Positions 739 through 4,577 of a stretch of DNA of 6,649 nt are shown in pieces. Below the pieces are notes generated by a model. That model did not search any database. It was not told the origin of the DNA and worked only from the letters and a program-made list of their open reading frames with translations. How positions within the stretch are numbered: position 1 is the first letter of the stretch; each line of letters opens with the position of its first letter. A program made the translations under genes and the position numbers. The stretch covers positions 1 to 6,649 of the forward strand of contig JAGGVJ010000001.1 in the NCBI GenBank assembly GCA_021158055.1. The letters run 5' to 3'. Source of the DNA: Candidatus Iainarchaeum sp. (GTDB lineage Archaea; Iainarchaeota; Iainarchaeia; JAGGVJ01).

Positions 739-2007
739 TTACAAAAGCATCCATTTCCAAAGTGGCACAAATTTAATCCCGTTTTCTGTTTTTTCAAGGT
801 CTTTGGTCAGCAAGGTTAGGTTTTTTGTTTTTTTGAATGTGTTTTTGAATTCAATCAAGCCTTTTAGTTCCCGTTCGTTTAAGTCGTTGGTAAACGAGAC
901 GTTTATTGCTTCAAGTGATTCGTCGTTGTTTTTTATCACGAAGTCAATTTCGTTTTTTCCTTTCCAGTAAAAGATATTTTTGTTTTTTCTCTTTAGTTCA
1001 AGGAAAACCAGGTTTTCAGCAAGTCTTCCCTCGTCTTTTGAAAACGTAAAGGCGACCGCGTTTCTTAACCCGTTGTCGACGCAAAATGCTTTTTTGGCGC
1101 GTGTTTGCTGTTTTTTCAGTGAGTAGTCAAAAAAAGGGATTAAGTAAATGAAGTTTATATCCTCAAGATAAGAGACATAGTCGCTGATTGTTTCTTTGCT
1201 TGCAGGCGTTTGTTTTGAAATTTGCTTGTAGTATGAGTTTATGCTGAATATGTTTGCAAGGTTGGTTACCAGAAACTTGGAAACGTTTCGTAGAAGGGCG
1301 GTGTTTTTTATTGAAAACCTGTCAATTAGGTCTTTATATATTGTCATTTCAAAATAGTTCTGCAGCAAGGTCTGTTTTAGTTCAGGGCTTTCAAGCACCA
1401 CTTCAGGAAAACCCCCAAAACGCAGGTATTCAGTGAATTTTTTTTTTATTGTGAACCGCAAAGGGGAATATTCAAAGTTTTTTTCAAGCTCAATGTTTTT
1501 GAACCTCAAGAATTCCCTGAAACTAAGGGGAAATACCTGAAACGAAAGGGTCCGCCCCCTAAGTGAAGTCGCTATTTCTTTGCTTAACAGTTTGGAACTT
1601 GATCCTGTCAGGAACAGTTTTACGTTTTCAGTGTCGTTTATTCTCCTCACAAAAGATTCCCAGCCCGGGACGTTTTGTATTTCGTCAAAGAAAAAGTGTT
1701 TTTGTTTTTCTTTGTTTTCAGGATACAACTCAAAATATGCTTCAATCAAGTCGTTTAAGTCTTTTAGTTCCAAAGGAAAAATGCGGTCGTCTTCAAAATT
1801 CACGTACAGGATTTGTTCAATTGAAGTTGTTTTTTTCAGTTCAATTATCAACTGGTAAAAATAAGTGGTTTTTCCGATTTGCCTTGACCCGATCAAGGTA
1901 GTTATTTTTTTTGTGGCAGGAATTTTCAAGTCCCGGTTTATGATTTTCGGAAACTTTTTTTTGTGAAATTCTTTTATTAACAGTTTGAATGTTTCTTTTT
2001 TGGACAT
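739..2007 (-). CDS. AAA-family ATPase with C-terminal DUF4143 domain
   Basis: This 422-residue protein has the AAA_14-winged helix-DUF4143 layout, at the usual length for the family. The Walker A loop is G-S-R-Q-I-G-K-T at 40-47, Walker B is H-F-F-F-D-E-I-Q at 104-111, and a sensor-1-like L-F-L-T-G-S-S-S lies at 131-138. S-L-R-G-R at 148-152 is the conserved segment after it. Residues about 230-290 resemble a winged helix. The C-terminal part contains G-K-N-E-I-D-F-V at 350-357, typical of the PD-(D/E)XK-like fold of DUF4143, but the catalytic lysine position is not evident (E-A-I-N-V-S at 366-371), so nuclease activity is doubtful. The family is widespread and often multicopy in archaea; its cellular role is not settled and links to toxin-antitoxin-like or mobile functions are only suggestions. 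It is transcribed alone. Its codons are strongly A/T-biased (AAA, TTT, ATT), more than the neighbours, hinting at transfer. Confidence 0.93.
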   Translation of the reverse strand: MSKKETFKLLIKEFHKKKFPKIINRDLKIPATKKITTLIGSRQIGKTTYFYQLIIELKKTTSIEQILYVNFEDDRIFPLELKDLNDLIEAYFELYPENKEKQKHFFFDEIQNVPGWESFVRRINDTENVKLFLTGSSSKLLSKEIATSLRGRTLSFQVFPLSFREFLRFKNIELEKNFEYSPLRFTIKKKFTEYLRFGGFPEVVLESPELKQTLLQNYFEMTIYKDLIDRFSIKNTALLRNVSKFLVTNLANIFSINSYYKQISKQTPASKETISDYVSYLEDINFIYLIPFFDYSLKKQQTRAKKAFCVDNGLRNAVAFTFSKDEGRLAENLVFLELKRKNKNIFYWKGKNEIDFVIKNNDESLEAINVSFTNDLNERELKGLIEFKNTFKKTKNLTLLTKDLEKTENGIKFVPLWKWMLL

Positions 2008-2279: not shown

Positions 2280-3110
2280 TTATCTCCAGATTTCCTTTGC
2301 TTTTTCAAGTGTTTCGGGAACCCCGACGTCAATCCATGCCCCGGAAAAAGGGTAACCTGTCAGTTCCCCTTGCTTGGAGCTGTTTATCAGCACCTGGAAG
2401 AATTCAAAGAATTTTTCTTCAGGGAAAAACCTGTCTGAATCAGGGTTCAGGACAAATACCCCGGCGTTAATCAGGTTTGAAGGCGCGTTTTTTGCATCCG
2501 GCTTTTCAACAAACCCTGTTACTTTGTTTCCCTCAATTTCCGCTACCCCGAACCTTGAGGGGTCTTCAACTGTTTTGAGCGCAACAGTTATTGCGCGGTT
2601 TCTCTGTTTGTGCATTTCAATCATTTTATACAGGTCAAAATGACATAAGATGTCGCCGTAAAGAAGCACTACAGGATCGTGGATTAAGCTTTTCATCATG
2701 CGCAGGGCTCCGCCGCTTCCAAGCCGCTCTTCCTCTTCCACGTATTTTATCTGCACGCCGAAGTCAGAGCCGTCCTTAAATTTTTCCTTGATGGTTTCTC
2801 CTTTGTAGCCGATTGCAAGGATGATGTTTTTTATTCCTGAGTTTGAAAGCCATTCGATCTGGTGCTCTAAGATGGTTTTTGAGCCGAGCTTGATCATGGC
2901 TTTGGGCACGTCAAAGGTAATGGGGCGGAGTCTTGTTCCCTGTCCCCCGGCCATGATTACTGCGGTTTTGATTTTTCGTTTTTTCAGCGCCTCGTTCACA
3001 AGCGATTCGATAGCGTGGCTCCTGCTTCGGATTACTGTCCCGTCGATCAGTGAGTCAAGATCGCTTAAAGTGTTTCCGTCAATAGATATGGTTATTCTTT
3101 CCTTGTCCAA
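2280..3110 (-). CDS. Sugar-phosphate nucleotidyltransferase with N-terminal ribbon-helix-helix domain
   Basis: The 276-residue product has two parts. Residues about 4-44 match a ribbon-helix-helix (CopG/Arc type) DNA-binding domain: strand E-R-I-T-I-S-I-D, helix L-S-D-L-D-S-L-I-D, turn R-S-R-S-H, helix A-I-E-S-L-V-N-E. Residues about 47-276 form a GT-A-type NTP_transferase that would make an NDP-hexose and pyrophosphate from a hexose-1-phosphate and NTP. Its landmarks are G-G-Q-G-T-R-L-R-P-I-T at 55-65, K70, L-G-S-G-G-A-L at 130-136, metal-binding D153 in Y-G-D, E-K-P at 202-204, N-A-G-V-F at 215-219 and W-I-D-V-G at 259-263. The L-G-x-G-G-A-L and G-D-I-L features lean toward mannose-1-phosphate guanylyltransferase-like enzymes, but nucleotide and sugar are unproven. 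There is no left-handed beta-helix tail. The start is TTG, supported by AGGTGAT just upstream; no in-frame ATG lies nearby. The enzyme is cytoplasmic and may be autoregulatory. Confidence 0.92.
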   Translation of the reverse strand: MDKERITISIDGNTLSDLDSLIDGTVIRSRSHAIESLVNEALKKRKIKTAVIMAGGQGTRLRPITFDVPKAMIKLGSKTILEHQIEWLSNSGIKNIILAIGYKGETIKEKFKDGSDFGVQIKYVEEEERLGSGGALRMMKSLIHDPVVLLYGDILCHFDLYKMIEMHKQRNRAITVALKTVEDPSRFGVAEIEGNKVTGFVEKPDAKNAPSNLINAGVFVLNPDSDRFFPEEKFFEFFQVLINSSKQGELTGYPFSGAWIDVGVPETLEKAKEIWR

Positions 3111-3113
3111 AAA

Positions 3114-3120
3114 ATCACCT
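3114..3120 (-). promoter_or_regulatory. Shine-Dalgarno AGGTGAT fixing the TTG start of the nucleotidyltransferase
   Basis: On the minus strand AGGTGAT matches seven bases of the anti-Shine-Dalgarno complement GGAGGTGATC. The AGG core sits seven bases before the TTG at 3110-3108. This decides the non-ATG start and retains the whole ribbon-helix-helix domain. Confidence 0.75.
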
Positions 3121-3214: not shown

Positions 3215-3241
3215 TGTGTTAAATGTGTTGAATGTGTTAAA
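3215..3241. repeat. Three tandem 9-bp repeats, TGTGTT(A/G)AA
   Basis: Copies at 3215-3223, 3224-3232 and 3233-3241 read TGTGTTAAA, TGTGTTGAA and TGTGTTAAA with no spacer. They lie in the 296-base region between two divergent genes, about 105 bases upstream of the nucleotidyltransferase start and 165 bases upstream of the S-component start. Short regular repeats like these suit cooperative binding by a small dimeric regulator; the ribbon-helix-helix domain encoded next door is a candidate. Confidence 0.6.
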
Positions 3242-3268
3242 TCAATAAAGGGTAATTTGATTATAAAA

Positions 3269-3285
3269 ACTTTTTCATAAAAAGT
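3269..3285. repeat. Inverted repeat ACTTTTT-CAT-AAAAAGT
   Basis: Seven-bp perfect arms flank a 3-base centre. A TATA-like TTATAAAA at 3261-3268 directly precedes it, so the site could be an operator or part of a secondary promoter in the divergent region. Being A/T-rich, it could also occur by chance. Confidence 0.35.
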
Positions 3286-3343
3286 ATGATTTTTTTATTT
3301 ACCTTGATTTTCCAGTAAAAACAAAGTTTAAGAGTGAAGAAAA

Positions 3344-3406: not shown

Positions 3407-4219
3407 ATGAAAAAAAGTTTTGAGTCAATTCAAAAAACAGTGCTTGTTTCAGGCAGGGAACTTGAAAGGCAGATAATGAAAACACTTGATTTGAGAAAAG
3501 AAAAAACAAGACAGATTTTTTCAAAAACACTGCGTGAGTTTAAGTTGAGGTCCCATGCAGGCGAAAGAGAAAAAAGCAGATTTTCCCTTCACAGGCTGCA
3601 GTCCCTTAAGTTTGATTTTCAGGAAGCAAGACCTGCTGTCTTGTGGTTTGCGTTGCTTGCGGCGGCAGTCGCGGGAAGGGCCGCGTTTCAGGGAGTCCCG
3701 AGCGTTGAGCCGATAATCCCGATAACTGTTCTCGCGGCGTACCTGCTCGGCCCCCTTGGAGCAGCGGCTCTTGGCTTCAACGCGTACATGGCTTCAAATT
3801 TTGTGGTCTGGGGGGGTCAGGGCTGGTGGACTGTCTTCCAGGCAGCGGGAGGGGCTGCAGCGGGACTTACAGCAGGCGTTTATTACAAGTTCAGGAAACC
3901 GACGCCGTTAAACTCTGCTTTTCTGGTGGTGGTCGGAACAGCTTTGTTTGAAATCAGCGTGAACGCGCCATGGACAATTATGGCTGGTCTGCCGTCGCTT
4001 TTGCTTGCAATCCCATTCACTTTCACTCATTTTGCCTCAAATATTGCGTTTTCCCAGGCGATTCCTTTTCTTTCAGGATCAAAAAAACTGAAAAAACTGG
4101 CAAATAAAGAAAAACCAGATCAAAAACAAGGAGGAAATTCAAATGAGGAACTTACTTTTTACCGCATTAATTCTGACGGCAGTGTTGCTGGCATGCGGGT
4201 GCGTAAGCCAAGGAAATGA
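3407..4219 (+). CDS. ECF-transporter S component-like membrane protein with basic N-terminal extension
   Basis: From the ATG at 3407 the product has 270 residues. Residues 1-74 form a highly charged, lysine/arginine-rich cytoplasmic segment. Residues about 76-222 are membrane-embedded, with five to six hydrophobic segments (about 76-94, 103-127, 141-160, 169-188, 193-218). The pattern P-S-V-E-P-I-I-P-I-T, L-L-G-P-L-G-A, and S-N-F-V-V-W-G-G-Q-G-W-W-T-V-F-Q at 130-145 matches a family of energy-coupling-factor substrate-binding (S) subunits whose members carry G-Q-G-P-W-T-P-x-Q. AxxxA motifs in the first segment (A82-A86, A85-A89) are typical contacts with the T subunit. S components usually have about 180-200 residues, so the extension is unusual. 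It is followed by, and overlaps, a DUF4430 lipoprotein gene, which points to corrinoid uptake. No A or T subunit genes are in the window. The 54-base upstream extension to GTG 3353 lacks a ribosome-binding site. Confidence 0.75.
   Translation: MKKSFESIQKTVLVSGRELERQIMKTLDLRKEKTRQIFSKTLREFKLRSHAGEREKSRFSLHRLQSLKFDFQEARPAVLWFALLAAAVAGRAAFQGVPSVEPIIPITVLAAYLLGPLGAAALGFNAYMASNFVVWGGQGWWTVFQAAGGAAAGLTAGVYYKFRKPTPLNSAFLVVVGTALFEISVNAPWTIMAGLPSLLLAIPFTFTHFASNIAFSQAIPFLSGSKKLKKLANKEKPDQKQGGNSNEELTFYRINSDGSVAGMRVRKPRK
4130..4134 (+). promoter_or_regulatory. Shine-Dalgarno GGAGG of the DUF4430 gene, inside the upstream coding region
   Basis: GGAGG lies eight bases before the ATG at 4143, within codons of the S-component gene. 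A strong site here means the second gene can initiate independently although its start is 77 bases before the first gene's stop. Confidence 0.8.
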
Positions 4220-4577
4220 TTATCCGGCACCGGATTCAGGTTTGCCTGTTTCAGGCACAGACCTTATGCCCCTGGATGTCGTAATAAATATTGCTTCAGG
4301 CAATTCAACGCAAACTTTTTACTCAACAGCAAAAACAGGCTCAAGTGCTTTTGACGCGCTTGACAAAATCGCTGAAGTCGAGGCGACAGACGGCGAGTAC
4401 GGAAAGTTCATAACATCAATTAACGGTGCCAGTCAGGACGAGTCGCATTACTGGATGTTTTTTGTGAACGGCAAGCTTGCAAGCGTCGGGTCTTCAAGTT
4501 ACGTGCTTGAATCGGGAGACGAGATAGAATTCAGACTGATGGATTCTCAGGAAGCAGGCGCGCTTATGGGCTATTGA
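4143..4577 (+). CDS. DUF4430 (transcobalamin-like C-terminal domain) lipoprotein
   Basis: This 144-residue protein starts with a short basic end and hydrophobic stretch, then L-L-A-C-G-C. Lipidation is most likely at C20 (G-C-V-S-Q-G-N), with C18 possible, so it would be anchored outside the membrane. A flexible linker follows to about residue 43. Residues about 44-135 match DUF4430, related to the beta domain of transcobalamin and intrinsic factor: T-F-Y-S-T-A-K-T-G-S-S-A-F-D-A-L near 58-73, W-M-F-F-V-N-G at 104-110, and Y-V-L-E-S-G-D-E-I-E-F at 120-130. In bacteria DUF4430 proteins are found near S components linked to cobalamin, so the inferred job is corrinoid capture and handover to the membrane partner encoded just upstream. 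Binding itself is not shown by the sequence. It is translated from its own Shine-Dalgarno site and followed by T-run terminators. Confidence 0.85.
   Translation: MRNLLFTALILTAVLLACGCVSQGNDYPAPDSGLPVSGTDLMPLDVVINIASGNSTQTFYSTAKTGSSAFDALDKIAEVEATDGEYGKFITSINGASQDESHYWMFFVNGKLASVGSSSYVLESGDEIEFRLMDSQEAGALMGY

What the first reader, a model, noticed from the sequence alone, without database searches (positions are those of the whole stretch)
2280..3110. Ribbon-helix-helix DNA-binding domain fused to a sugar nucleotidyltransferase
Residues 4-44 read as a complete ribbon-helix-helix domain, joined by a few lysine-rich residues to a full catalytic domain with all expected motifs. The strong Shine-Dalgarno before the TTG shows that the fused form is the translated product. 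Joining a transcriptional regulator fold to a biosynthetic enzyme suggests the enzyme may sense sugar-phosphate or nucleotide-sugar level and repress its own or the divergent promoter.
Basis: partly seen in the sequence, partly recalled or inferred. Interest (0 to 1): 0.62.

Follow-up and report, generated by a model that had tools for sequence, protein, structure and literature searches.

The report
Sugar nucleotidyltransferase with DNA-binding domain
An archaeal enzyme that makes activated sugars carries a DNA-binding domain at its front, and a short mirror-image DNA site next to its gene, shared with relatives in related genomes, suggests that the enzyme switches its own gene or the facing gene on and off.

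Summary
Window 2280-3110 (-) encodes a 276-aa protein: a ribbon-helix-helix (RHH) domain, residues 4-44, fused to a sugar nucleotidyltransferase (NTase) whose checked catalytic residues are all present. It is not a chance fusion. The architecture occurs in 25 of 87 genomes searched in the window's archaeal phylum, and in about 19 of 300 genomes of a second phylum. The window genome has a second copy, facing a nucleotide-sugar operon. Two subgroups keep the RHH residues but have lost the enzyme's nucleotide-binding loop, so the DNA-binding part is maintained without catalysis.

I found a candidate operator. A 15-bp palindrome, TCATA-N5-TATGA, lies just upstream of most relatives. Its half-sites match those of E. 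coli NikR, whose RHH is the best structural match by profile. In the window it lies at 3275-3289, between the gene and its divergent neighbour, and it is the only exact copy in the 1.15-Mb genome. Twelve of 14 sites in 15 genomes sit beside such a gene. The half-site base changes with RHH residue 9.

Best reading: an active enzyme that also binds one local operator (PutA-like), with a sugar or nucleotide ligand as the likely signal. DNA binding, ligand and direction of control are inferred.

The parts
2280..3110 (-). RHH-sugar nucleotidyltransferase gene, 276 aa, TTG start
2979..3101 (-). RHH domain, residues 4-44; predicted base-contact residues R5, T7, S9; helix-B motif RSRSHAIE
   Evidence: RHH_1 match, NikR profile match, AF2 model and SvtR fold match, alignment
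2289..2966 (-). NTP_transferase catalytic domain, residues 49-274, with G-loop, K70, D153, E202-K203, W259-x-D261
3114..3120 (-). Shine-Dalgarno AGGTGAT, 3 nt before the TTG, complementary to ATCACCT of the 16S rRNA 3' end
3275..3289 (.). candidate RHH operator, palindrome TCATACTTTTTATGA (- strand) / TCATAAAAAGTATGA (+ strand)
   Evidence: only exact TCATAN5TATGA in the genome; 0 of 4000 shuffles as good; same element upstream of relatives
3294..3301 (-). TATA-like TAAATAAA beside the operator, facing the RHH-NTase gene (assignment by eye)
   Evidence: inference
3261..3269 (+). TATA-like TTATAAAAA on the other side of the operator, facing the divergent gene (assignment by eye)
   Evidence: inference
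3215..3238 (-). three AACACA repeats at 9-bp period, unique in the genome; a possible second binding site
   Evidence: function inferred
3407..4219 (+). divergent gene facing the operator: 270-aa predicted membrane protein, no confident family

Best explanation
The protein is a sugar-1-phosphate nucleotidyltransferase with an N-terminal NikR/CopG-like RHH domain. As RHH dimers, probably held together by the oligomeric enzyme part, it binds the palindrome at 3275-3289 between overlapping divergent promoters and controls transcription there: its own gene, the divergent membrane-protein gene, or both. Occupancy of the NTase active site by sugar phosphate, NTP or nucleotide sugar probably changes the placement of the RHH dimers and so DNA binding. 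In relatives the enzyme part has lost its nucleotide-binding loop while the RHH and operator persist, so those would be pure sensor-regulators. Shown: the fusion, its conservation, intact catalytic residues here and eroded ones in relatives, the conserved operator-like site. Inferred: catalysis, DNA binding, ligand, sign of control.
For: RHH by family, profile and fold. NTase domain with all checked catalytic residues. Architecture in 25 of 87 genomes of the phylum and about 19 of 300 in a second phylum. RHH residues kept while the G-loop and W-x-D are lost in 17 group-B and 4 group-C proteins, each group one clade. Palindrome: exact TCATACN3GTATGA occurs 6 times in 87 genomes, 3 of them at most 61 bp upstream of RHH-NTases; TCATAHN3GTATGA gives 14 sites in 15 genomes, 12 beside RHH-NTases; all 22 of 243 upstream regions with at most 2 mismatches belong to RHH-NTases or the gene facing them. 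The window site was not used to define the motif and is the genome's only exact copy of TCATAN5TATGA. Half-site base and residue 9 covary, 9/9 against 0/12. Half-sites equal those of E. coli NikR, GTATGA-N16-TCATAC (PMC7055735), whose strand RVTITL matches RVTITI of group B. Relatives face UDP-glucose dehydrogenase operons.
Against: The window palindrome ends 165 bp before the TTG; most relatives have it 21-61 bp upstream, so it may serve the divergent gene only. The paralogue in the same genome lacks the site, though its contact residues also differ (I/S/N). The divergent gene has no evident link to sugars. Covariation counts are not independent; about three lineages carry them. No experimental data.
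Confidence: 0.62

Rival explanations
1. The protein is solely a transcription factor; its NTase domain binds a nucleotide sugar as ligand but does no useful catalysis, as in the eroded relatives.
For: Groups B and C lack the G-loop and the second catalytic Asp yet keep the RHH, and most keep the operator; the own paralogue has a damaged G-loop, AGGRSSQLHP.
Against: The window copy keeps every catalytic residue checked, including G-loop Arg60, D153 and W-x-D261, and sits on its own long branch, outside groups B and C.
Confidence: 0.2
2. The RHH part only dimerises the enzyme or tethers it to DNA; there is no specific regulation.
For: RHH domains are obligate dimers (general knowledge); no binding data exist here.
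Against: Contact residues R5/T7 and the helix-B residues R30/S31 are near-invariant; conserved palindromes lie beside the genes and covary with residue 9.
Confidence: 0.1
3. The palindrome belongs to another regulator or is a promoter element; the RHH-NTase binds elsewhere, for example the AACACA triple repeat at 3215-3238.
For: In the window the repeat is nearer the start codon and is unique in the genome; the palindrome is far from the TTG.
Against: The palindrome goes with RHH-NTase genes across many families, is otherwise rare, and has NikR half-sites.
Confidence: 0.12

Closest known systems
PutA (RHH + proline dehydrogenase + P5C dehydrogenase), general knowledge
   Same: N-terminal RHH fused to a metabolic enzyme; PutA represses at a local divergent promoter region, which is the role inferred here
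   Different: Unrelated enzyme fold and pathway; bacterial; flavin redox is its signal, whereas here a sugar or nucleotide ligand is assumed
NikR nickel regulator
   Same: Best profile match of the RHH; same strand pattern R-x-T-x-T/S; same half-site TCATAC/GTATGA
   Different: C-terminal nickel domain replaced by an NTase; half-sites 3 bp apart in opposite order instead of 16 bp apart
GMPPB / tlr0611 / MurU-type sugar-1-phosphate nucleotidyltransferases (7d72, 8x7s, 4y7t)
   Same: Catalytic domain by sequence and fold
   Different: No RHH domain matched in them; the C-terminal left-handed beta-helix of GMPPB is absent here
GMPPA, catalytically inactive partner of GMPPB (general knowledge; complex 7d72)
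   Same: An NTase that has lost activity and is kept as a sensor beside an active paralogue, like groups B and C
   Different: GMPPA acts on the enzyme by contact, not on DNA

Membership tests
RHH (MetJ/Arc/CopG) superfamily | Sequence profile match over the full domain | tested here: met
   RHH_1 1-39/39, 21.8 bits over cut-off 20.5 for residues 1-48 alone (17.1 bits in the whole protein); NikR E=1.1e-5 with the family profile
RHH (MetJ/Arc/CopG) superfamily | Strand-helix-helix topology | tested here: met
   Extended 1-11, helices 12-19 and 30-44; best fold match SvtR, though Foldseek E is 0.74; the strand is not formed in the monomer model
RHH (MetJ/Arc/CopG) superfamily | Two-stranded ribbon in an obligate dimer | not testable with these tools
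   Only single chains could be modelled
RHH (MetJ/Arc/CopG) superfamily | Sequence-specific DNA binding | not testable with these tools
   Indirect only: conserved site and covariation
Sugar nucleotidyltransferase (PF00483) | Profile over its gathering score | tested here: met
   150.5 bits against 21.2
Sugar nucleotidyltransferase (PF00483) | G-loop GGxGTRLxP, catalytic Lys, metal Asp, second Asp | tested here: met
   Present in the window; lost in groups B and C
Sugar nucleotidyltransferase (PF00483) | Catalytic activity and substrate | not testable with these tools
   No NCBIfam equivalog reaches its cut-off
PutA-like trigger enzyme | Active enzyme that regulates a promoter through a fused DNA-binding domain | tested here: inconclusive
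   Architecture and operator-like site present; regulation not measured
PutA family proper | Proline dehydrogenase domain | tested here: not met
   Pfam finds only the NTase families and the RHH
NikR family proper | C-terminal nickel-binding ACT-like domain | tested here: not met
   NikR models match residues 3-46 only, far below their cut-offs

The most novel reading that the evidence does not exclude
A widespread archaeal family in which a sugar nucleotidyltransferase gained a DNA-binding domain and then, in two clades, lost its catalytic centre and became a dedicated nucleotide-sugar-responsive regulator of a single local operator. The window copy would be a still-active enzyme-repressor, so that the path from enzyme to transcription factor can be read in living genomes.
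Probability: 0.45. Interest if true: 0.75.

Novelty: new variant of a known kind. Interest (0 to 1): 0.62.

Why it matters
Few enzymes are known that also act as DNA-binding regulators, and my full-text searches found no report of one made from a sugar nucleotidyltransferase. Here the family supplies active-looking and eroded members and a predicted operator with a residue-to-base covariation, so the regulator, its site and its likely ligand class can be tested directly. It would offer a handle on how small-genome archaea control synthesis of surface sugars.

Tried and rejected
The genome-contig scan with the whole protein found NTases whose matches begin after the RHH in nearly all cases; the archaeal ones read in full have no RHH. 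A literature search for this fusion found nothing relevant; the toxin-antitoxin 'minimal nucleotidyltransferase' of DPANN (PMC6393860) is, from general knowledge, a different fold and was set aside. Plasmid relatives align mainly to the NTase part; no RHH was looked for in them. The AACACA triple repeat was my first operator candidate; it occurs once in the genome, and I did not see it upstream of relatives when reading those regions, so I rank it below the palindrome. A second palindrome, CATA-N7-TATG, upstream of many Thermoproteota members is weaker: individual shuffle fractions 0-0.17 for 13 of 19, and it overlaps a TATA-like box. No Rfam family reaches its cut-off in the window.

Full report
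What was checked. The ORF at 2280-3110 (-) is real and open from a TTG start, with no earlier start codon in frame. AGGTGAT precedes the TTG by 3 nt and is complementary to ATCACCT in the 3' end of this genome's 16S rRNA. The genome is archaeal by SSU and LSU rRNA; the window is one whole 6649-base contig of a 1.15-Mb assembly.

The two domains. Residues 5-44 match RHH_1 over its full length; the score passes the Pfam cut-off only when the segment is scanned alone. A profile from 21 homologous N-termini finds NikR at E=1.1e-5 and then other RHH proteins weakly. The AlphaFold2 model of the domain has the two helices in place (pLDDT 89), and its best PDB match is the archaeal-virus RHH regulator SvtR, TM 0.77, probability 0.95, with a weak E-value of 0.74 as expected for 47 residues. 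Residues 50-272 are an NTP_transferase, closest in fold to tlr0611 and GMPPB. G-loop, Lys70, Asp153, Glu202-Lys203 and Trp259-x-Asp261 are present.

The family. A profile of the fused proteins gives full-length matches in 25 of 87 genomes of the window's phylum, 11 of 23 families by my count from the table, and in about 19 of 300 genomes of the phylum of a Desulfurococcales MAG (sequences). The window's genome has a second copy whose G-loop is damaged (AGGRSSQLHP); it faces gmd, an epimerase and a UDP-glucose dehydrogenase. Within the phylum there are three kinds. Group A has an intact or nearly intact G-loop (window and relatives in families f6 and f20). Group B (17 proteins in the tree) has lost the G-loop and W-x-D but keeps Asp153 and a near-intact EKP. 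Group C (4 proteins) is eroded further. B and C are each one clade (100/99 and 100/100); group A is not, and the window sits on a long branch of its own. In all of the RHH segments aligned, R30, S31, A33 and E35 are invariant. Group-B genes are head to head with a nucleotide-sugar dehydrogenase gene in at least ten loci, often with a GalU-like NTase and an epimerase behind it.

The operator candidate. Reading the upstream regions of relatives showed a shared palindrome, TCATAC-N3-GTATGA, usually ending a few bases before the start codon and following a TATA-like TTTAAATA. The exact form occurs only 6 times in 87 genomes, and 3 of the 6 lie at most 61 bp upstream of RHH-NTases. The form TCATAH-N3-GTATGA has 14 distinct sites in 15 RHH-NTase genomes, roughly 16 Mb, of which 12 lie directly upstream of an RHH-NTase. 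The pattern came from these genes, so presence there is partly circular; the rarity elsewhere is not. The window is a fair test because its sequence was not used to set the pattern: it has one site with one mismatch, at 3275-3289, none of 4000 dinucleotide shuffles of the intergenic region did as well, and TCATAN5TATGA occurs exactly nowhere else in the genome. Among 243 upstream regions in the fetched loci, the 22 with at most two mismatches all belong to an RHH-NTase or to the gene facing it.

Recognition. The half-sites are those of E. coli NikR, GTATGA-N16-TCATAC (PMC7055735), and the RHH strand RVTITI of group B is nearly NikR's RVTITL. Proteins with Thr at position 9 never have T as the first base of a half-site (0 of 12); those with Ser or Asn always do (9 of 9, Fisher 3.4e-6). 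These are not 21 independent cases; about three lineages carry the Ser/Asn state. The own paralogue, with different contact residues, lacks the site.

Limits. In the window the palindrome lies 165 bp before the TTG, between TATA-like boxes on both strands, so it may serve the divergent gene, the RHH-NTase, or both. The divergent gene (3407-4219) has no confident family. Nothing here measures DNA binding, ligand or enzyme activity. Similarity to PutA and GMPPA rests on general knowledge.

Verdict. A real, conserved fusion with a well-supported candidate operator; a new variant of the enzyme-plus-DNA-binding-domain kind.

Noticed in passing
window 3215-3238 (-): Three AACACA repeats at 9-bp period in the probable 5' leader of the RHH-NTase gene, unique in the genome.
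   Followed up: partly
window 3407-4577 (+): Divergent predicted membrane protein (weak ECF S-component hit, E=0.11) overlapping a DUF4430 lipoprotein-like gene (2.4e-20): possibly a vitamin-uptake pair.
   Followed up: no
window 739-2007 (-): AAA_14/DUF4143 ATPase downstream of the RHH-NTase.
   Followed up: no
L088-L091 (G018, G050, G038, G051): Group-C RHH-NTases with heavily eroded enzyme part; L090 has four tandem TCATACNNNN repeats upstream at 10-bp period.
   Followed up: partly
L164-L179: Thermoproteota RHH-NTases of a second RHH type (KHRTSIEFP...) with a G-loop lacking the Arg, and CATA-N7-TATG at -37 to -42 in many.
   Followed up: partly
L080, L081, L093, L094: Group-B RHH-NTase followed closely by an intact NTase without RHH on the same strand: an eroded and an active-looking copy side by side.
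   Followed up: partly
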